Of a DNA stretch of 64,000 nucleotides, positions 6,059 to 54,403 are shown piece after piece. The DNA lies in the NCBI GenBank assembly GCA_033220425.1, contig CM065649.1, positions 992,001 through 1,056,000 on the forward strand, written 5' to 3'. A program made the translations under genes and the position numbers. This stretch comes from Lepraria neglecta (taxonomy: Eukaryota; Ascomycota; Lecanoromycetes; Lecanorales; Stereocaulaceae). The first letter of the stretch is position 1. Every line of letters starts with the position of its first letter. The notes under the pieces are model-generated. The model was not told the origin of the DNA, searched no databases, and saw only the letters and a list, made by a program, of their open reading frames with translations.

Positions 6059-7491
6059 TCATTCAATCTCGTCCAGCTCTTCGTCTTCGACTTCTACATT
6101 GTGAACCTTCGTCTCCCGATTAACACGGCATGGCTCCAGGTGCTGCAAAAGATCTATTATGGAGTCTATATCCACCAGTCCCACGTCTTTGCATCTTACA
6201 TTGTGCTCAACCTCACATAGTCGGCGGTAGTCGATACGCGCTTGCAATGGTAGTGCAGCGGAAGGATGAGTGGCATTTACTCTGATAGGTGGTTTGACCA
6301 TCCCAGTCTCGCCGGGCAACAAGGACGGACATTGGCTCCCTGTGAAGATGATGCCGTAATTTTCTTGATCTGGCTGTTGGGAGCAGCCTCGAAGACCAAG
6401 CGTGCTTACTGGCCTGCATACACATCAATCAAATACCCGAGCTCGGGAACAGGGAGTACTCACAAGCAATAGCTCGACCGAATGCCTTCATGGACAACTA
6501 GGAATCGCCGTACAGTCGTCGGTCCTGTGACTACGCGTTAGTGTTCCCTTTACGTCCACTCCGTGTTCGCGGATTGAATACCTGTGTACGGGCCAGTATA
6601 GTAATTTGCATACCTCGTGCGGGCTATGCGGTCATCTTCGATACTCGGCTGATCATCAGCAACGATGTGTGCTTCTTTCACGAGATCCTCCACGTTCCAT
6701 AGCATCATAAAGACTTGGCCGATGCGGAAGAAGTCTCTGGCATCCTTGAGATGGGAGTAGAAAGCTTTCAAGTCCATGTCAGTCATTTGCCTCCTATCAC
6801 TGACCCATTGATCAGTGGAATGCCTTACCTGGATCATGATATCTGGTCCCTCCACTTCTTAGACCGATATGTTCGAATACCACAAGATCACTGTCATAGT
6901 CAGGAGCAGGGATGGTTTTCTCGTCTTCGAGGGCGCAATCCGATCCCAGTTCCTGGGCCCCATAGACGGTCATAAATACAGAGGTACCAGGTGGCTTTGC
7001 AACAAAGCTGTAAAAAGATCTATTAGTTGTCTGAGCTGCTTGCCTCCATAACGAAAATCTTACTAGCTCGCAGTCGACAGTAGAATATTAATCGAAAGAA
7101 GTCTCAGCTGAAGCACATCCCGCAACGCTTTCACATCGTCTTTCTTGTGAAGACTCCATCCCATCTTCCGCCAACTATCTTTCACTGACGACCCTAAGCC
7201 TCCGCTGACGCCAAGACTGCGTCTATATTTCTCTGTCTTTTCGAGAAAAGCTTCTATTGGCGCTCTGGCGCTGTCGACTTGATGTCTCAGTGCATTGATA
7301 GTGGACTGGTTCAGTTGATTTGCAGCTTTCATTTGCTCTACTTGTAGTAGTGTTCTGTGCACGCAGCTTAAGTCTTGGATTAATTGCTGGTATTCCATGC
7401 TTGAGCCGCTGCTTTCGGAGAGTGCGGAGATGAGCTTGTAGGCTAGGCTGGCGGCGGCGATGAAGTCGCCGGCTGAGAAGCCGAAAGACAT
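6059..7491 (-). CDS. DUF6590 protein with STAND-type N-terminal domain
   Basis: Five exons on the reverse strand (7491-7064, 7007-6829, 6764-6582, 6530-6464, 6413-6059) join in phase to 403 codons. The first exon begins MSFGFSAGDFIAAASLAYKL, an N-terminal helical domain common in fungal STAND and ubiquitin-like-domain proteins. Later exons carry DUF6590 hallmarks: FFRIGQVFMMLW, VRRFLVVHEG, YCLPVST, NYGIIFTG, LLPGETGM and the C-terminal VEHNVRCKDVG. The 51-nt intron 4 (GTGAGT...GCAG) is required to join YCL to PVSTLG. No nucleotide-binding domain lies between the two parts. The intron 2 acceptor (AAG) is the least certain boundary. Function is unknown. Confidence 0.78.
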
Positions 7492-8467
7492 GGCTGATAG
7501 CGAGATGGTGCACTGTTTGGCATTCAAGCTCTTCCTCACCTATAGTGTTTCACATCACAGCGCGATAATCGACAAGATCCGTCTAGGCAGCCGTAATAAC
7601 AAAAGATGACATCCCAGAACCGGCTTTTACGAAGATCATATCATTGATGCCGAATTGCATCTTTCAAGCATGGGAACAAGCTTAGGCAAAGGCTGGCTGT
7701 TGAGACAAGCTTTTGGAGCGGTTGACCAGGGAGCGGGGCTGACATCTCATCGCCTCATCGCCTCTTGGCAAACGATACTTCAATGTATGCTGATATCATC
7801 TACATGAGAGATGAGGACTTGAGTGGTTGCTTCGAAATGGGAGTCCTTCTCTTCAGAGGCAGATGTCTATCCGAGCTACCCCACCTAGTCTTGGCGTCAA
7901 TGACAACGGATCGACGCCAGGGAACAGCGCCATGGGTTGGTTCTATGGCAGGATTTTGGTCACCTAGTTGCCAGTGCCGTCGACAATCCTGCGCAACCAA
8001 TCTCAAAGGGATTTGGCGTTCCTCTAGCTCTGCAGACGACAAATCCTGGAGGCCCCAAAGGTCATCTCCCATTGGTATGGTCGTTAACGGATGCGGCGTG
8101 GTGGGATTTTAGGATCCGAAACCGAGTCGCGGCCGATCGATTTGACAACACTGTAGCTGCTACCACGTCTTGCCAATCGTTTCTGTCCTACTTGGTCCGA
8201 CTCAGTGCGTTCGTCCGAGATTACAGATCAAGCCAGCGTTCTGCAGAGGCTTTACGGTCCGTTGACAATGGTGCAATATGGCATTTCTAATTCATGTTCG
8301 GGAGGAGGTATATCCGAGTTCCGAAACAGAAGCCACTAATATTAATGAGCGTTGCCCTTCAACTTCTTACCACTTCCTTGTTTCTTCTGGGAAAAACAAC
8401 AATTTGTGTCTACCTGCTTTTCTTTCCATCGTCTCGTCTCCTCTAACATATCAAACATCTACACACT
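7492..8467. other. divergent promoter region, no supported gene
   Basis: About 1 kb between the starts of the DUF6590 gene (reverse) and the Gal80-like gene (forward). Open frames of up to 117 codons on both strands have no domain resemblance and are read as chance. The stretch probably serves both genes as a shared upstream region. Confidence 0.45.
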
Positions 8468-41237: not shown

Positions 41238-41414
41238 TACCTGCCGCGCCGGTTCCGGTTGTGGCCTCTATTACCGTATAAGTACACTTCGCAGGATAAG
41301 CTGGCTCTCGAATAAAGGAAACCGCAAGCTAAGATCGCCTCGGATAGGATATGACCTTTAGAGTCTTTCGGAACGAACACGGAAAAGCCGAGTTCGCTAT
41401 CTAGGTTAGAAGTT

Positions 41415-43545
41415 ATCCCGGCCCGACGACACCTCCGGCTCAGCGACACCCTACACGAAAAAATCATCAAATTTTCAATCATGGATTGCTCTACCCACAA
41501 CGCTCGTATTGATCTCGCAGTCGCTGATTTGCATCAGCAAGAGAAGCCTAATTCCAAGGCTACCGCTAGAAAACATGCCGTCAACAATACGACCTTGAAA
41601 CGCCGATACCAACGCCGACAGCTGTCCAAGCAAGCTGCTTCTTCCGAATATCGCTAATACCTTACTTTCGCTTAAGAAGAGACCTTGATAGGCTTAATCA
41701 ATAGCCTAACCGATCGTGGAATACCTCCTACCAGCCAAATTGTACGCAATTTAGCACAAGAGATGATTGGCCGGCCGGTAGGGAAGAACTGGACTGGCGA
41801 TTTTGTCAAGCGCTACAAAACTAGGCTCAGAAGCCTCTATCTACGAAATATCGATAGCCAGCGAATGAAAGCAGAGTATGCGCCTTTATTCAAGTAATTC
41901 TATAACTCGGTAACTCTTCTGAAGCGTTGGTTAGTTAGATTGCTAATATTCAATATAGCTAATCGCCGCTGTCGAGAAATATAATATTACCGGCGATAAT
42001 ATCTACAACTGGGATAAAAAAGGATTCGTGATTGGCTAAGCAGGTACTACACAGCGTATAATAAGCAGGGAAGCCCTTGAAAACGGCCGTATTATATATG
42101 CAAGTCAAGATGGAAGCAGAGAATTCATTAGCTTGCTTGCATATATCAACGCTACAGGAGCTGCTCTCCCTCTATCACTCATCTACAAAGGTGAATATAT
42201 ACTATAAGATATATGGCTAGAGGACTGGCTACCTAAAGATACAGCCTATTTCGCAGTCTCATTAAACGGATAGAGTTATAATACTTTAGGTCTTTATTAG
42301 CTAGAAGCAATATTTTACTATTATATAAGCAAAAGAGCCGGAAGAGGACGTCGTTTATTGATTGTCGATGGATATAGCAGTTATATTAACCTGAAGTTCA
42401 TTGATCTATGTGATAAACTACGTATTCTCGTGTTGGTTTTACCTCTATATTCAACGCATCGTTTGTAACCTCTTGATATATCCCTTTTTGCGCCTTTAGC
42501 GTCTTATTATACTAAGGGTCTCAATGAATTGATAATAAATAGTCTAGCTATGGTCTCTATGTCGAAAAGAGCCTTTTGGAGCGTCTTCTAGCCTGCTTGG
42601 CAGAAGGCATTTATACCTGTAAATATCGCTTCCGGCTTTGAAAAAACTGGTATTTGGCCCTATAATCCAGCGATGACTCTAGATAAAATCACCAAGCCGA
42701 CTCCGACCGAAGCCCCTTCAATAGTAAAGATACTAATAATATGTCGTACTGTCCGCCGAGTCTAACGACAATACTATAATTAACCGAATTCACCTTTACT
42801 TAAGAAGCTTTTTCGAGTGAATAAACGCCTTACTTCTTAGTACTCAGTAGACTAATATATTATTAAAGGCTTAATAGTATCCCTTAGGAATAAAAAGAAG
42901 AAGAGATAATGTGGTAAACGCCTTAATCTGCTTGGTGAAGAAGATTCTAGGCCTTAATTCTTTAGCCTATAGCGAGTATAAGCTGCCTGTTAATTTCAAG
43001 CTATAAAAGACGCTGAAGAAGTACTACGACAGCAGCAAGCCCTTGATAAAAAAGCTTTAGTAGCTACTAGAAAGGCTTAAAAAGAGGAGGATAAGCTATA
43101 TAGGGCAATACTCGCTACCAAAAGACGTCAACTCGCTGCAGAAGCGTTAGCCTAGAAAGCTGTAGATAAGCAAGCTCAAAAAGAGCTAAGAGAAGCAGCA
43201 AAACACCATAGCGCAGGGTAACTAAGCTTAAACAAGTAATCTATAAAGCTTCTAAAAGCTTAAAAGACTCTTAAGAAGCAAGTAAAAGGGTCTAGTCATG
43301 CTATCGTCGCATTATAAGTCGAGGAGGTGATTTCAGCTATATCTCGTAGAAGGAAGGTTTAACGCCCACGGCGCTTTAATATATAAGGATTCTGGGCTCA
43401 ATCATTGTATATACACCTTCTATCTACTATATATTTAATTCTAAACTCACTAATCGTTGCGGTTGTTGATTGGTGACGAATATGGTATTTTAATGATTTC
43501 GTCAAAAGGGTGTCGCCGGGCCGGGGGTGTCGCCGAGCAGGGATT
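41415..43545 (+). mobile_element. Fot1/pogo-like DNA transposon, degenerate
   Basis: Terminal inverted repeats of about 37 bp bound the element. The left end TCCCGGCCCGACGACACC and the reverse complement of the right end TCCCTGCTCGGCGACACC align with a few differences, and TTA flanks both ends, consistent with TA-type target duplication. Each terminus contains two tandem copies of a CGACACC-type unit. Inside, a frame from ATG 41481 starts MDCSTHNARIDLAVADL with a psq-type helix-turn-helix (NSKATARKHAVNNTTLKRRY). The CENPB-type DNA-binding part is at 41685-41897 (GRPVGKNWTGDFVKRYKTRL). The DDE part is recognisable only as fragments, with very many stops and strong TA enrichment, as after RIP. 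About 2.1 kb long, close to a full-size Fot1-type element, not autonomous. Confidence 0.8.
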
Positions 43546-43594
43546 ACGTCTATACGAGATGCCAAAAATATGACGTGGACACCGGAGAAAAGGT

Positions 43595-44640: not shown

Positions 44641-45003
44641 ATGATATAGCTGCCTGATCGCTACAGTGGGACTGTGGGTTAGTGTGTCTCATGATCAGAT
44701 GCGGTTTCAGCCATGCGCCATGACCATGGGCCATAGCGAGAGATCCGTGCTTCCTGAGAGCACTATTTGTATGAGCATCCCACCAGCAGTTGGCTCTTCA
44801 GTCGAGTGCATCTCTTTCAGAGCTATAGCAGTTCTTTCCAGCCCACCCGCACCCTATACATAGCCTATATATAGCCTATCTACACTCCAGGTCTATGCCG
44901 CCTAGGCATGGGAGTTTTCTAGCGCTGGGGCACCTGTTGTAGCCTTTCTAGGCCTGCTAGCCCTGGCGTTAGACCGCCCAAGCATCTATTTACATATCCA
45001 CTT
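44641..45003. other. spacer, no supported gene
   Basis: About 360 bp. Contains a short direct repeat (CATAGCCTATATATAGCCTAT near 44862-44880) and otherwise nothing recognised. Confidence 0.4.
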
Positions 45004-47243: not shown

Positions 47244-50048
47244 CTATGTAAGCTTTTTCCAAAATCGAGCGAAAGAATCATAAGGCTTCGTGTTCCGGCC
47301 GTTCGGGTGCTGAGTGCAGGATTTGTTTTCAGAATTGAAAGGTTGTCGATACGAGTTTGTTGTGTTTTGAGGACTTTTCTCCAAGTTTGTCAGTGTATAA
47401 GTTGAAGCGATAGTCTCAGGATGCTCCTCGCCCAGTGTTCTCTTCCTTACTTCCAACACTCGCCCCGTCAGCTGCAGCGCCTCCTGTCGTCGACCCGCCT
47501 CGCTGTACCTGATGGCGAGGTTGTGCATCGAGCCGAGGGTCTCAGGATGCTCCTCGCCCAGTGTCCTCTTCCTTACTTCCAACACTCGCCCCGTCAGCTG
47601 CAGCGCCTCCTGTCGTCGACCCGCCTCGCTGTACCTGATGGCGAGGTTGTGCATCGAGCCGAGGGTCTCAGGATGCTCCTCGCCCAGGGTCCTCTTCCTT
47701 ACTTCCAACACTCGCTCCGTCAGCTGCAGCGCCTCCTGTCGTCGACCCGCCTCGCTGTACCTGATGGCGAGGTTGTGCATCGAGCCGAGGGTGTCAGGAT
47801 GCTCCTCGCCCAGGGTCCTCTTCCTTACTTCCACCACTCGCTCCGTCAGCTGCAGCGCCTCCTGTCGTCGACCCGCCTTGCTGTACCTGATGGCGAGACT
47901 GTGCATCGAGCCGAGGGTGTCAGGATGCTCCTCGCCTAGTGTCCTCTTCCTCACTTCCAACACTCGCCCCGTCAGCTGCAGCGCCTCCTGTCGTCGACCC
48001 GCCTCGCTGTACCTGATGGCGAGGTTGTGCATCGAGCCGAGGGTGTCAGGATGCTCCTCGCCCAGGGTCCTCTTCCTTACTTCCACCACTCGCTCCGTCA
48101 GCTGCAGCGCCTCCTGTCGTCGACCCGCCTTGCTGTACCTGATGGCGAGAGCGTGCATCGAGCCGAGGGTGTCAGGATGCTCCTCGCCCAGGGTCCTCTT
48201 GTATACTTCCACCACTCGCTCCGTCAGCTGCAGCGCCTCCTGTCGTCGACCCGCCTCGCTGTACCTGATAGCGAGAGCGTGCATCGAGCCGAGGGTGTCA
48301 GGATGCTCCTCGCCCAGGGTCCTCTTGTATACTTCCACCACTCGCTCCGTCAGCTGCAGCGCCTCCTGTCCTTGACCCACCTCGCTGTAGCTGATAGCGA
48401 GGTTGTGCATCGAGCCGAGGGTGTCAGAATGGTCCTCGCCCAGGGTCCTCTTCCTTACTTCCACCACTCGCTCCGTCAGCTGCAGCGCCTCCTGCCGTCG
48501 ACCCACCTCGCTGTACACGAGTGCAAAATTGCCGGCCATTGTCTGACAATCTTCGCCGATATTTTGAAGCGAGAATACCCCATCCTCTCGAAAACCGAGG
48601 CAAGCATCGATATGTGGCATCATAGACTGTCGGAATCGATAGTCCGTAGTCTCAAAGGTCCACGGGATTGACAGAGCTATTATCGCCGTCGTCTGTCTCC
48701 AGACCATGTCTTCATCTGACGCAATCATCTGATCTCGAGTCCAGGAGTGGACGAGGGGATGAATAGAGATCAAGCCGTTCTTATCACGATAAATAAGAGA
48801 AAATGCTCGCAGAATCGATATCGCTGCCCGAAGAGGGTATACGTTCCATTCCTGATCAGATTGACGGAGTAGCATCTTCAACTGATGTGAAATCATCCAG
48901 TCGGACGGTCTATCATTGTATAAGCCCCGCCATGCACGGCAGAAGATCTCTTCCGAAATGCCCTCATAATGGATGAAGCTGAACATCTGAAGTAATGCAA
49001 GAGCGTCTTGTCCGGCCTCACTCGACATCTCCTCGATCATGCGTCGTGACACCTCCCAAGTCGTGTACACTGTGTATCGATAGTCCTCTCCACCTTGTAT
49101 GGCTTTCTGACTCAAAAGCTTTTTGCGACCCCGAGAGTAAAGAGTGCGGTATTCCTCCATTTTGCAATAGCCCTGTCGGATCACCGCTCCAGCCTGGGTG
49201 ATCGCGAGCGCCAACCCACCCAGGGTCAGAACGACTGATTCCGCAGCCTCTCGTATCGATCGATTGGACATATCATCGGTCCCAGCCGTCCTGAGCAAGA
49301 GCGTCACAGCTTCACCCGTCACCATCGCACCTAGCTCGTACGATCCAACGGTAGCGTGAACCTTACAATCCGGGTTTCGAGTCGTAATTAAGACAACTCC
49401 TCGGTTTCCCCTCGGAAAGTATGAAGAGATGTCCAGACGAGGATCGTCCGCGTTGTCTAGGATCAGGGCCCACGGCTCCGAGATGTTCGACAGCCATCGC
49501 TGGACAACCGAAACCCGAGACTCCAGCCCGCAGACTTCAGCCACCTGTAGATAACCGCGTTCCAAGCTCTCTGCGCTGCTTGCGTCCATCCAAAATATAC
49601 CCCAAAACCTGAAGCACCGTCATTACGAGAAGAGAGGGCAAACAGACCGAACACGCCTACTTATCGCGGTGATCTTCCGCAAACTTGAGGCCTACCTGCG
49701 TCTTTCCTGATCCGCCCAGGCCATGGATCACAAATCTCTTCTGCTGTCGTTGTGTGTTTGGCTTGCTGGATGGCGAGCAGCGGGCGCGTAGCTGTTCGCA
49801 GATCTCTTCTCGCCCGGTGAAGGTAGGGCTGGGATCTCGGGGCACCTCGAAATGCTTGTTACGGAAGCGAGAGATTGGCGTACTTGGACCTAGGACGTGA
49901 TCTTAGCAAGCTTCCTGTTCGACAGTGCGTGGTGTCAAGACCAGCTACACTTACTGGCATGATTGTGTATATCTCCGATGTGTACCTTAGCCTGCCCTGT
50001 GGCATTGAATCTTTCTGCTGTATGACCTCGTGGAGAAGCTGGAGACAT
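47244..50048 (-). CDS. NB-ARC/TPR STAND receptor (fungal NLR) with near-identical repeats
   Basis: Three exons (50048-49955, 49889-49661, 49608-47244) join in phase to 895 residues. Exon 1 is a short Gly/Asn/His-containing leader (MSPASPRGHTAERF, then GQAKVHIGDIHNHA). Next are VPRDPSPTFTGREEI and the P-loop VIHGLGGSGKT. After intron 2 come FWGIFWMDASSAES, Walker B WALILDNADD, ITTRN, and the GLPLA-like GGLALAITQAG, all NB-ARC marks, then a winged-helix-like region. The C-terminus is a kinesin-light-chain-type TPR array: eight 42-residue units of nearly identical sequence (LTERVVEVRKRTLGEEHPDT type) and a ninth that diverges. Such proteins oligomerise on ligand binding and trigger cell death or defence in incompatibility. 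The ligand is unknown. Confidence 0.88.
47484..48491 (-). repeat. eight 126-bp tandem TPR repeats, near identical
   Basis: Exactly eight 126-bp units lie between the GAG codons at 48491 and 47483, and a ninth partial unit extends to about 47367. Differences cluster at a few codons per 42-residue unit: Glu/Gly and Val/Leu near the start, Arg/Tyr, Asp/Glu, Asn/Ala/Ser and Glu/Lys. The rest, including silent positions, is almost unchanged, which points to recent unit exchange. Confidence 0.9.
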
Positions 50049-50280: not shown

Positions 50281-51130
50281 CCTTCCGCGTACACCCCAAT
50301 TCTGTAGGCGTACACCCTATTATACTACGCGTACATCCCATACTTCCTTAGGCGTACACCCGTTCCCATATACCAAATTCTTCAACATCAAAAACATCAA
50401 ATTCTCGCCCACCCCCACCGCTATGAATCTACAACCGCCCGCCGGAGCACTGGCAAGAGCCTCTTCTCGACAGCCTTATCCTCAGGTTTCAGCGGTATAC
50501 AGGCACGCACCAAAAAATTCAAGAAGACCAAAGAGGACCGCAGAGCTTGGATACGGTGTAACCGCGGGGGGCAAGCCCGAGAAGAATAGCATTACTGACA
50601 GTGTTCCCATCGACTGTCCCTTCAAGATTATCGCCTGGCGGAAGACTGAGGAGGATCTCTGGCAATATAAGATCTCTCATAGTGGGCACAATCATAGGCC
50701 TACCATTGAGGGGTCTTATAATTCCCTACGGCAGATAGCAAGGACAAGAGAGCAGGAGAACGCTATAATTAACCAATCGCGAACAGGCTCCAAGCCGTCT
50801 AAGGTCCTTGCCTCCCTGCGTCTCGGAATAGACGAAGAAAACCCTCTCCTTAAAGCTTCCGATGTCTATAATATCAAGGCGAAAGAACGGGCAGAAGTAC
50901 TAGGCGCATTAACTCTAGTCTAGGCCTTACTAAGATAACTACACCAGCGAGATAATTGGTTCGTAAGGTTTTACATCCACCAGACTAATAGATGGCTAGA
51001 GTATTTATTCTTTACGAGGAAGTCTGCTATAAAAGATCCTATAACTGAATTATGAGGTTATAATTCTGGACTGCACCTATAAGACGAACCGCTACAATAT
51101 CCCATTAATAGTAATTACTGGAGTCACCGT
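50281..51130 (+). mobile_element. MULE-type DNA transposon relic
   Basis: The forward frame at 50423-50923 encodes an N-terminal FAR1/GCM-like zinc domain (DCPFKIIAWRKTEEDLWQYK, ISHSGHNHRPTIEG) and the following linker (LRQIARTREQENAI). Downstream, in frames with stops, are RDNWFVRFYIHQTNRWLEYL and FFTRKSA, the start of the MULE transposase core. The catalytic remainder is absent. At 50285-50372 four copies of a GGCGTACACCC unit, about 22 bp apart, precede the frame and look like subterminal repeats of the element. The 3' limit is not clear. It is AT-shifted relative to its frame, as after RIP. Confidence 0.6.
50285..50372. repeat. four GGCGTACACCC repeats at the MULE end
   Basis: Copies at about 50286, 50307, 50327 and 50351 with one or two differences each. 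They are candidate transposase-binding sites of the MULE relic that starts coding at 50423. Confidence 0.65.
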
Positions 51131-51198
51131 GTTACGATGCCAGTGGGGCATGATCGGGAATACGCCGGGGAATGAACCCTGGTTGAGTCGGACCCTGA

Positions 51199-51315
51199 AC
51201 ATGGTGGTTCATAGGTTTCGAACGTTGAACAACATGAACATAGTGGTTCATGGGTTTCGAACGTTGAACAATATGAATATGGTGGTTCATGGATTTCGAA
51301 CGTTGAACAACGTGA
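51199..51315 (+). repeat. 39-bp minisatellite, three units
   Basis: Three consecutive 39-bp units (core GGTTTCGAACGTTGAACAAC) with a few substitutions each. The forward frame through them reads a 13-residue repeat MVVHGFRTLNNMN, but no surrounding gene supports translation. Confidence 0.85.
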
Positions 51316-51398
51316 GTATGGAAAGCTTGGCATGGTTTCCTATGTCTATATATGCGGAGCTCTGCTTAGCACTTAATATCGTGTTCAACTTAATTTAT

Positions 51399-51832
51399 CA
51401 TATAGATCTCCTACTAGCTACTGAACAAAGTATATCTCTTTATTAGACCTACTAGTGACACTAGTACAACGAAGTCTGCTTTACTCTTGCCTGTTATACT
51501 CCTCTCCTACCGAGACCAATATTAAACGACACGGTCGTAACATCGTAGTTAGTAAGACTTCCGGATATAGGATATCGAGCTCTTCGTATAGATCTTTCAA
51601 CTGCTCTAAAACCTACTGGAAGCTGGCCGTCCTTTCGTTTTTTATGAATGCGAACGCTATATAGTATAACGTATTCAGGGCGGTGTGTTACGACCGTGTC
51701 GTTTAATATTGGTCTCGGTAGGAGAGGAGTATAACAGGCAAGAGTAAAGCAGACTTCGTAGTACTAGTGTCAGTAGTAGGTCTAGTAAAGAGATATACTT
51801 TGTTCAGTAGCTAGTAGGAGATCTATATGAGC
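51399..51832. mobile_element. foldback-type element with ~145-bp inverted arms
   Basis: The left arm (about 51399-51543) and the reverse complement of the right arm (about 51687-51832) match over about 145 bp with only a few differences. Shared strings include TACCGAGACCAATATTAAAC and GAACAAAGTATATCTCTTTA. A spacer of about 145 bp separates them. Outer ends both read TCATATAGATCTCC, and inner ends both read TGTTACGACCGTG outward from the spacer. It is either a MITE/foldback element or two facing LTR-like pieces. Confidence 0.7.
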
Positions 51833-54403
51833 TTTAAAGGGATTGACGGACGGAAGATCTGAGACCCTCGGTTTGGCTGGAAGAAATACGGATGGGTGGT
51901 AAATTGGATTTCCTTGCTTAGAACCGATGACTGTCTCGTAGTAGAGTTTTCAGAAGCTCTAGTGAGCCGTGCGTGGTTCTTTATAGTCCTTGTTTGAGCC
52001 GCCAACCTTCCTATTAAGATCAGGGTCCGATGCAATATGGATTGCTAATTAAGTCGCTTGTGATACTGATACAGAATTGCTGGCCACTTAAACCTCACGC
52101 CAAGTCGAGACCAAGGTGCGTTACCTATTGTGAGTCACTTCTGAATGCGCTACGTGGGATATTGCCCATGCATTAGCGCAAAAGACGCTACAGAAACTCA
52201 TTGGTCATAAGAGAAAGAGCACCTCATCGGCTGGTCAAGGATGCAAGCGGATGACACCTCCTGCATATGTTCTGTGGATAATATGTGTATCCCATCATTT
52301 TTCTAGGATCTAACCCTCGCCCTGGTGTCCACTTCTCTGGGTTCGTTATCAAGGTGACGGCCCGAGTAGCTGGAAGCAGTAGCTGGAAAACTGACGGGAA
52401 AACCAACAAAAGGGAGAACAAGAACCTGATTGGAGGATTGGTCAGAAGTAGTGCTCCAGTGCGGCAGTCACTTTCCTGGACTCTTAACGCCCCACCCGTT
52501 CACCTAGTACCATCTAGGACGATGTAATAAGCTAGAGGAAGATTTGAGGCTTGAGATTCACGCGGTATTACAGGATGAGAAAGGAACGGCCCCAGACGTG
52601 AACTTCGTTTGATCTGCTAAGAGCAGTCTTCCGGGAGAATAGCGCCGCTGTCGAATAGAACTCCGTTTTTGCCCAAGACACTTTATGCATGCAAAGCCCA
52701 CCTCATAGGTTCAACCAGTCAGGGTTGAAGAAGGGACCGATTGTGGAAGACGTGGAGCACACGATTTAACAGTATAAGACATAGAACGTGCTACTAAGGC
52801 TCTTAAAAAGGGAAACGTTGACCGGCGCTGTAATTGAAGGTTGCCTAATGTTTGTTTCCTTTGACATAGGACACATCCTCTGCCAATAAGATGATCAATT
52901 GACCCCCATCTGCATGTGACGGTGATAATATTGGGAGGATCCATAGTCGCTGCTGCGTGCTCGTCTGTGCCAACGGTCGACTGGCCTTGGTGAGGAGGTA
53001 GAGACGCCGGGAATTTCGGGCGACAAAGGCTTTGGTAGTAGTTTCGGTGATAGGTTCAATGAGAGTATCAAGCAAGCGTGCTTCTTTAGCTGTTCCCTAG
53101 AACGGGAGCAGTGCAGTGCCAATCTCAGACTCTATGCTCGTAACCCTAGTAGGAGCGCAGGCCTCGCCAGTGCGAATATCGTTATCTTCAACCATAATTG
53201 GGTAATCTATAGAATGTTAGAGCGATACCTTGCAGCAGAGTAAAGATATGCCATCAAGACTCACCTTGGCTATTATCATATGATTCAGAATGCGAGAAGA
53301 CCGGTGTCTCTGAGCAGGCCAAAACATTGGATCATGTCTAGTGGGGGTGGAATTTGAAGCTGGGACTCCAAAACGCACCGAACGGGGCCAGACGAGAGTT
53401 ATATGCACCCGCCTCTTCCTCTCCAACAACATTAATCGCCGATCTCTGGCCGTCGCCGCTCATTCGCCAGACCGAATACGCTCGATCACCGCTCATCCCG
53501 TCTCTTAACTTGCGGCAAGCGCTGCTGCTGCAGCTCTCGGCCACTTGAGCCTCGTATTCGACCCATGCGCCATACCGGCTGAATCTTCGCTGCGCCCCTC
53601 GGAGATGTCCATCCATCGTGCTTCGTCAGCTGCTGTTGTCTAGATCTTTAAGCTAAGACGGTTATAACGGGTCGGTAGCACTGCCTCTCTCCGATCAATA
53701 GCAAAAGGCCACAATCGCGTCTCGAGGCCACGTCATCCGAACGACGCGTTTGTGGCATCCTTGTCGGCGCAGCCAGGTAGATACGACTGTGGATCGAGGC
53801 GAGGCTAACGCTCCTTCGACCCCATTGGCTGGCTTTGGCTTACCGCCGCTGTTTGGGTTCAAGCTCAGTCCCTTAATGTCAGGTCCTCTGATCATGGGTG
53901 AGATGCGATCCTTATTGGGGGACCTCCTTCGGCTAGGTCGGCGGCGCTGGAGCTGCGCTAGTGAAGCAATCATCGCAGCTATCAAAATACTCTAGATTAT
54001 CGGTTCATTTTCGAGCGAGAGTCGCGAGAAATGTAGCAGGAGTCGACAGCAGAGAGAATGAAACAATAAGAGGGCGCGCAGGCGAAGAAAATAGAGGAGT
54101 GCGACAATGGCGAAGTGGGACAGGCAAGTATTTTATGCGCTGCGCATTTAGTATGGCCCGGTAAATGTACGCCTTGGATGTAAGCAAGGGTGAATTTGTG
54201 CAAACAGTGGCCCGTCCTCTAGGCAGCAGGCGGCCGCCAACGAAGGCAATTGAAGCCGGGCTCAAGGGAGCCCGTTTAGGCTCCAGCGTGCTGCGCCGCT
54301 GCACTGCCCCCCGGGAGCTCACTCCGGCTCAGGGACGGCTCAGGTACGGCTCAGGGCCGCTCACCCTGGCTCACCTTAAAGCGGCTGCAGCTCACCTGCG
54401 AAG

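What the first reader, a model, noticed from the sequence alone, without database searches (positions are those of the whole stretch)
47367..48491. NLR-type receptor with eight near-identical 126-bp TPR units
The sequence shows eight exact-length units whose silent sites are nearly all conserved, while a few codons (Arg/Tyr, Asn/Ala/Ser, Glu/Lys, Glu/Gly, Val/Leu, Asp/Glu) vary. In fungal NLRs such 'high internal conservation' repeats are known to be re-shuffled and under diversifying selection at ligand-contact positions. This suggests a rapidly evolving specificity gene.
Basis: partly seen in the sequence, partly recalled or inferred. Interest (0 to 1): 0.72.

Follow-up and report, generated by a model that had tools for sequence, protein, structure and literature searches.

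The report
Fungal immune receptor with prion-like motif
This is an intact fungal immune-receptor gene whose repeated ligand-binding part is being copied and reshuffled, and whose start carries a short prion-like motif that may switch on a cell-killing protein encoded on another chromosome; the gene type is known, but a layout of several receptors and one intact killer gene would be unusual.

Summary
The repeat array is real: nine in-phase 126-bp units (not eight), minus strand 48530-47397, in an intact three-exon gene model (50048-47244) of a 42-Mb fungal genome. The protein (895 aa) is an NB-ARC/TPR NOD-like receptor. Such genes with highly conserved TPR units, concerted evolution and concave-face variation are published (Dyrka 2014), so the array itself is ordinary. 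The genome holds five close relatives, four open. Units are far more alike within this gene than the NB regions are between genes (dS 1.1-1.4), and two recent duplicates (dS 0.05) already have 12 and 16 units. Variation at one published set of TPR contact positions is significant in the four paralog arrays but not in the window array. A motif query found seven places, all next to NLR genes; the matching HeLo doublet was found in two genes, one intact (contig C3), one broken with RIP-type changes. No HeLo match lies in the window; the NLR sits between transposon-like repeats. Best reading: an amyloid-signalling NLR without linked partner, perhaps acting in trans on the surviving HeLo. New member of a known kind; the many-to-one layout is untested.

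The parts
49955..50048 (-). Exon 1 (94 nt): start codon and single HET-s-related amyloid motif r0 (RGHTAERFNATGQAKVHIGDI, first base 50030)
   Evidence: splice model (no transcript evidence); motif; motif criteria from PMC4518210
49890..49954 (-). Intron 1 (65 nt, GTAAGT...TAG)
49661..49889 (-). Exon 2: linker and P-loop (GLGGSGKT) of the NB-ARC domain
49609..49660 (-). Intron 2 (52 nt, GTAGGC...CAG)
47244..49608 (-). Exon 3: rest of NB-ARC, following region, TPR array, C-terminal tail and stop
48531..49589 (-). NB-ARC to pre-TPR region used for paralog comparison (353 aa)
47397..48530 (-). Array of nine 126-bp units (TPR_10, 42 aa each)
47244..47396 (-). Tail after the last unit; its end (FARFWKKLT) resembles that of paralog L034 (FTRLWKKLV)
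50300..53300 (.). Repetitive stretch upstream of the gene (49 matching pieces genome-wide, itself included; MULE transposase fragment, 21.5 bits, below its cut-off of 27.6); no HeLo match
41406..43553 (.). Dispersed 2.15-kb repeat downstream of the gene (19 further places of over 500 bp, 8 of them near full length, 91-99% identical; the search scored 40 of 236 candidates)

Best explanation
The gene encodes an 895-aa NOD-like receptor: amyloid motif r0, NB-ARC switch, nine-unit TPR sensor. Inferred mechanism: a ligand bound by the TPR superhelix makes the NB-ARC domain oligomerise; [quoted passage not shown] Because no HeLo gene was found in the window, the partner is probably the only intact matching HeLo that the searches found, on contig C3 (C3:3000097-3000939), acting in trans and perhaps shared with paralogs. 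The TPR array evolves by unit duplication, loss and conversion within the gene. Shown here: an open gene model, domains, motif, paralogs, HeLo genes and their state, concerted evolution. Inferred: splicing, amyloid folding, templating, trans partner, ligand.
For: The splice model opens an 895-codon frame; NB-ARC and TPR_10. Exon 1 has one 21-residue motif with H3, hydrophobics at 5, 8, 10, 16, 18 and G19, the features given for HRAM3; a strict form of the pattern (written after I had seen the motif) occurs once in the six frames of the window, at exon 1, against 0.03 per Markov sequence (6 in 200). All six family members carry the motif just before the NB exon, in one with a shifted frame, and over the five copies compared r0 has pN 0.22 against pS 0.60. 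A motif query finds seven places, each just upstream of an NLR. The HeLo protein of C3 (PF14479, 179.7 bits) ends in two copies 7 residues apart; searched against the window and five paralog loci at E up to 1, its only window hit is exon 1 (E 0.13). Three of six family loci have a HeLo gene or remnant within 0.9 kb of r0. NB dN/dS is 0.13-0.17 in the four comparisons of the window gene. The TPR model matches Podospora nearly identical TPR-like repeats 4y6c (TM 0.86 by target, 0.43 by query).
Against: No expression, binding or amyloid data. Window r0 shares only 31% and 35% identity with HeLo r1 and r2, and searches with 32 and 58 residues can miss diverged partners; the r0 query did not even return the HeLo motifs. 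The loose HRAM pattern is expected 1.27 times per window by chance. The C3 HeLo lies between two NLR genes of its own (one broken), so it may serve only those. An orphan without a linked effector could be on its way to loss. A 92-codon frame open upstream of exon 1 (50265-49990) leaves room for a further exon; it has no Pfam match.
Confidence: 0.65

Rival explanations
1. Orphan NLR with a lost partner: the linked HeLo gene was deleted or replaced by transposons and the receptor now signals to nothing, or is a decoy, and will decay.
For: No HeLo match in the 64-kb window; transposon-like repeats on both sides; in this family the C6 HeLo is broken with a C-to-T/G-to-A excess (17 of 50 CpA and 29 of 61 TpG sites) and only a 67-residue HeLo remnant was found at C5.
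Against: The window gene is open over 895 codons with its P-loop intact and its NB region diverges from paralogs at dN/dS 0.13-0.17; five of six family members are open and one is broken.
Confidence: 0.17
2. The NLR signals through a different, unlinked effector carrying a diverged HRAM (for example a PNP_UDP or HeLo-like protein), not through the C3 HeLo.
For: HRAM3-like single motifs are reported at C-termini of PNP_UDP proteins (PMC9815663, passages); there are 28 HeLo-matching stretches here and a second HRAM-like HeLo/NLR pair on C8.
Against: The r0 query found only sites upstream of NLRs and the doublet query only two HeLo genes. A pattern scan of 20 of the 28 HeLo stretches showed this doublet only at C3. 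PNP_UDP genes were not searched.
Confidence: 0.13
3. Plain TPR protein (kinesin-light-chain-like) whose repeats are homogenised by neutral unequal crossing-over, without immune function.
For: Sequence hits to kinesin light chain TPRs; overall pN/pS 0.67 and no significant contact-site bias in this array.
Against: NB-ARC switch and amyloid motif in the same gene model; contact-site bias in the four paralog arrays with one of three position sets; HeLo genes or remnants beside three of six family members.
Confidence: 0.05

Closest known systems
FNT1/HELLF of Podospora anserina (r0 - NB-ARC - TPR receptor with a HeLo-like effector)
   Same: Same order of parts: N-terminal HET-s-type r0, NB-ARC, TPR; TPR number 4 to 11 in isolates (PMC7885112 passages; PMC7889193 passages)
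   Different: FNT1/HELLF use HRAM5 and a HeLo-like domain in an adjacent gene; here the motif has the H3 of HRAM3, the candidate effector is of the HeLo family PF14479 and is not linked to the window gene
NWD2/HET-S of Podospora anserina
   Same: Single r0 on the receptor, r1-r2 doublet on a HeLo protein, genes adjacent (PMC4518210 part 1); adjacency is seen at three of six family loci here
   Different: NWD2 has NACHT and WD repeats and HRAM1; the window gene has no HeLo neighbour
PNT1 of Podospora anserina (NB-ARC/TPR, PP motif)
   Same: NB-ARC/TPR with variable TPR number; its intron begins at nucleotide 95 of the ORF (PMC7885112 passage), and exon 1 here is also 94 nt
   Different: PP motif instead of HRAM; one intron, two modelled here
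High-internal-conservation TPR NLRs (Dyrka 2014, e.g. Pa_2_10340)
   Same: Near-identical TPR units, repeat-number variation, variable residues on the concave face (PMC4986451 section 17)
   Different: Pa_2_10340 has a sesB-like effector domain in the same protein; the window array itself shows no significant bias to contact positions
Podospora TPR-like repeats, PDB 4y6c and 4y6w
   Same: Best two sequence matches and first and third fold match of the array
   Different: Crystallised short arrays without receptor parts

Membership tests
Fungal NB-ARC/TPR NLR | NB-ARC domain over the curated cut-off with P-loop | tested here: met
   28.4 bits against 23.5 in the spliced protein; exon 3 alone gives 19.6, below cut-off
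Fungal NB-ARC/TPR NLR | C-terminal TPR array | tested here: met
   TPR_10 377 bits, nine stretches; paired-helix model, mean pLDDT 79.6 for the best of five models, others 44.6-66.8
High-internal-conservation repeat NLR | Units over 85% identical over at least 100 aa (definition in PMC4986451) | tested here: met
   mean protein identity of units 0.859 for all nine, 0.898 for the seven inner ones, lowest pair 0.690; the paper's own program was not run
High-internal-conservation repeat NLR | Concerted evolution of units | tested here: met
   unit pS 0.117 within the window array, 0.32-0.46 to paralog units; NB pS 0.57-0.63; nearest unit in the same gene for 9 of 9 window units, but for only 1 of 12 in L035, whose units match the recent duplicate L036
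High-internal-conservation repeat NLR | Diversification at ligand-contact positions | tested here: inconclusive
   window p 0.14, 0.59 and 0.74 with three published position sets; paralogs 0.001-0.045, 0.016-0.105 and 0.06-0.25
High-internal-conservation repeat NLR | Repeat-number polymorphism among isolates | not testable with these tools
   no isolates held; two recent duplicates in this genome differ, 12 against 16 units
HRAM amyloid-signalling NLR | Single 21-residue motif at the very N-terminus with core hydrophobics and G19 | tested here: met
   criteria in PMC4518210
HRAM amyloid-signalling NLR | Cognate HeLo gene adjacent (common, not systematic: 98 of 155 in PMC4518210) | tested here: not met
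   no HeLo match in the window; three of six family loci have a gene or remnant. The source does not require adjacency, so this does not exclude membership
HRAM amyloid-signalling NLR | Motif forms a transmissible amyloid that converts the effector | not testable with these tools
   needs an experiment
HRAM3 subfamily | H at position 3 | tested here: met
   six of six family members and r1 and r2 of the C3 HeLo; the seventh NLR has N there; the full HRAM3 logo was not compared

The most novel reading that the evidence does not exclude
A many-to-one amyloid immune network: several NLRs on different chromosomes, each with its own reshuffling TPR sensor, keep the same r0 key and share one surviving HeLo executioner, after linked HeLo copies were destroyed by RIP, truncation or transposon turnover. 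It would be a fungal, prion-based counterpart of plant sensor NLRs converging on a shared helper.
Probability: 0.32. Interest if true: 0.64.

Novelty: new member of a known kind. Interest (0 to 1): 0.42.

Why it matters
The repeat biology is published. What this locus adds is a natural experiment: one motif subtype, five open TPR receptors with very different arrays (5 to 22 units), and one intact matching effector found. Published work describes one-to-one pathways in Podospora and predicts, for other species, NLRs with similar motifs activating several unlinked effectors (PMC7889193 section 8); the converse, many receptors on one effector, could be tested here with simple seeding and deletion tests. 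It would show how a genome that mutates duplicated DNA can expand receptors while keeping one executioner.

Tried and rejected
Eight units: rejected, nine in codon phase. Fused effector domain upstream: in the motif's own frame stops lie just upstream of the start codon; a second frame is open over 92 codons (50265-49990) but has no Pfam match, so a further exon is unlikely rather than excluded. HeLo partner in the window: tblastn with the C3 HeLo found none. A gene at 7063-7539 minus was suspected by eye to be HeLo-like; Pfam gave nothing. Solved structures for the NB region: none up to E 0.1; for the r1-r2 doublet: only two hits at E 0.34 and 1.7. A bacterial promoter/terminator scan upstream found nothing and does not suit a fungus. 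A pattern scan had a spacing error (0 hits); the corrected scan is. Contact-site tests dropped the first and last unit of each array (10 of 64 units over five arrays) because edge units are diverged; they permute positions and ignore the relatedness of units, and L035 and L036 are not independent. Positions picked by eye from all arrays (last lines) are post hoc and not used as a test. L037 was left out of repeat statistics because no TPR unit was found in it; L036 (same r0 as L035) and L037 were left out of the r0 comparison. L039 and L040, more distant NLRs, were fetched and not analysed. Species was not determined. Antisense open frames over the array (47401-48375 plus strand and others) follow from a 126-bp unit being a multiple of three and are not taken as genes.

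Full report
Observation. The window is G000:C4:992001-1056000 of a 42.0-Mb, 11-contig genome. TRF reports a 126-bp period, 8.7 copies, 95% matches, at 47416-48516. On the minus strand this is nine in-phase 42-codon units, 48530-47397.

Gene. Two short introns with GT...AG ends (65 and 52 nt) join three exons, 50048-49955, 49889-49661 and 49608-47244, into one 895-codon frame; this is a model without transcript evidence. Pfam finds NB-ARC (28.4 bits, cut-off 23.5) and TPR_10 (377 bits, nine stretches). AlphaFold2 on the array alone gives paired helices, mean pLDDT 79.6 for the best of five models (44.6-66.8 for the others). Foldseek's best match is 4y6c, Podospora nearly identical TPR-like repeats (TM 0.86 by target, 0.43 by query), also second of the sequence hits after 4y6w.

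Paralogs. The NB region finds five close relatives in the same genome (66-75% identity), on C5, C6 (two), C2 and C3; four are open and one, on C3, has three stops. They were fetched as L034, L035, L036, L038 (open) and L037 (broken). Unit counts by pattern are 22, 12, 16 and 5, and 9 in the window gene; no unit was found in L037.

Concerted evolution. Window gene against the four open paralogs: NB pS 0.57-0.63, dS 1.07-1.39, dN/dS 0.13-0.17. Units: pS 0.117 within the window array, 0.32-0.46 between it and paralog arrays. For 9 of 9 window, 22 of 22 L034 and 5 of 5 L038 units the nearest unit is in the same gene; for L035 this holds for 1 of 12 and for L036 for 12 of 16, the rest lying in each other. 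Four-gamete conflicts (13 of 55 site pairs in the window array; 84 of 190, 48 of 66, 92 of 153 and 12 of 21 in L034, L035, L036 and L038) point to exchange between units, though recurrent mutation can add to them. L035 and L036 are recent duplicates (NB dS 0.053, dN/dS 0.60) yet have 12 and 16 units, a within-genome sign of fast repeat turnover.

Diversification. Published ligand-contact positions 2, 5, 6, 9, 12, 13 of the TPR (PMC1261162, passages) map to unit positions 39, 42, 1, 4, 7, 8 if Tyr6 is canonical 11 (my mapping). Their share of amino-acid entropy in inner units exceeds chance in L034 (p 0.001), L035 (0.024), L036 (0.045) and L038 (0.003, only three inner units), but not in the window (0.14). 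The most variable TPR positions of that paper (2, 5, 9, 12, 13, 33, 34) give p 0.06-0.25 in paralogs and 0.74 in the window; the five helix-A positions 2, 5, 9, 12, 13 give 0.016, 0.065, 0.105, 0.034 and, for the window, 0.59. Positions learnt from the other genes give p 0.004 (L034), 0.002 (L035 and L036 together), 0.0045 (L038) and 0.065 (window). Whole-array pN/pS is 0.67 in the window, 0.45-0.80 elsewhere. So the family shares variable positions, many of them in the concave helix; the window array alone does not prove it.

The amyloid motif. Exon 1 holds RGHTAERFNATGQAKVHIGDI. Daskalov et al. 2015 (PMC4518210, parts 1 and 2 of 5 read) describe HET-s-related motifs by hydrophobics at 5, 8, 10, 16, 18 and G19, with H3 in HRAM3; this fits, with alanine at 5 and 10. 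A loose pattern with H3 is expected 1.27 times per window by chance, a strict one, written after I had seen the motif, 0.03 times; each occurs once, at exon 1. All six family members have the motif directly before the NB exon, shifted out of frame in L037; over five copies (window, L034, L035, L038 and the seventh NLR) pS is 0.60 and pN 0.22.

The effector. PF14479 (HeLo) has 28 matching stretches in the genome. The best lies in an open 281-aa protein at C3:3000097-3000939 that ends in two motif copies, RGHNVTDWKAGGSSKMWAGDD and RGHNFARFTVSDHADVHLGNV, 7 residues apart. It stands between the broken NLR L037 and, on the other side, a seventh NLR with an r0-like motif (N at position 3) and a different NB domain. 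The C6 HeLo, head to head with open NLR L038, has five stops inside the match and a mutation bias typical of RIP: of 148 differences from the C3 copy 90 are G-to-A or C-to-T, with G-to-A at 29 of 61 TpG and C-to-T at 17 of 50 CpA (direction assumes that the C3 copy is the less changed). Next to open NLR L034 only a 67-residue HeLo remnant was found. None was found in the fetched flanks of L035 and L036 or in the window. Genome-wide, the r0 query (a composite I wrote) gave seven places, six of the family and the seventh NLR, and the r1-r2 query two, the C3 and C6 HeLo genes. A pattern scan of 20 of the 28 HeLo stretches showed this doublet only at C3. The queries are short and may miss diverged copies: the r0 query did not return the HeLo motifs.

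Setting. The gene lies between repeats: 41406-43553 (19 further places of over 500 bp at 91-99%, 8 near full length) and 44658-45000 (19 further places at 98-100%; the query ended there) on one side (40 of 236 candidates scored), and a repetitive stretch with a sub-threshold MULE transposase match on the other. The 2-kb blocks starting at 42001 and 50001 have the lowest GC and the highest TA/AT ratio of the 32 blocks of the window.

Mechanism. From NWD2/HET-S and FNT1/HELLF (PMC7885112 and PMC7889193 passages; PMC5485727 passages) I infer: ligand on TPR, oligomerisation, r0 beta-solenoid, templating of HeLo, cell death. With no linked partner found, the C3 HeLo in trans is my first choice; it is not shown.

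Novelty. Receptor class, repeats and motif are known. [quoted passage not shown] a 2025 survey finds head-to-head NLR pairs rare in Sordariales (PMC12258605 passages). I did not see many receptors sharing one HeLo described in the passages read after searches, which is not proof that it is not in print.

Noticed in passing
L034, L035, L036, L037, L038 (C5, C6, C2, C3, C6): Linked HeLo genes beside this NLR family are in three states: open (C3), broken with RIP-type changes (C6), 67-residue remnant (C5); none found at three loci including the window.
   Followed up: yes
L070/L037 (C3:2998114-3003108): One open HeLo gene stands between two NLRs: a divergent one with a different NB domain and an r0-like motif, and a broken family member.
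   Followed up: partly
L071, L045 (C8:761523-765910): A second HRAM-like pair: a HeLo protein that by eye ends in a motif doublet and an adjacent NB/TPR receptor of 995 codons; a further r0-like motif lies on the opposite strand nearby.
   Followed up: partly
L035 and L036: Recent NLR duplicates on different contigs (NB dS 0.053, dN/dS 0.60) with 12 and 16 repeat units.
   Followed up: partly
window 41406-43553 and 44658-45000: Dispersed repeats: a 2.15-kb family and a family of at least 343 bp with many near-identical copies across contigs.
   Followed up: partly
window 51398-51542 and 51686-51830: 145-bp inverted repeat, 98% identical, inside the repetitive stretch upstream; a 39-bp tandem repeat lies at 51196-51315.
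   Followed up: no
window 47401-48375 plus strand: 324-codon antisense open frame across the array, a by-product of a repeat length divisible by three.
   Followed up: no
L003 and L004 (C7:21351 and C9:18330): TPR_10 hits with equal scores near the starts of two contigs, with NB stretches holding 3 and 6 stops and HeLo stretches L055 (one stop) and L056 (none), suggesting a duplicated, decaying NLR/HeLo locus near contig ends.
   Followed up: no
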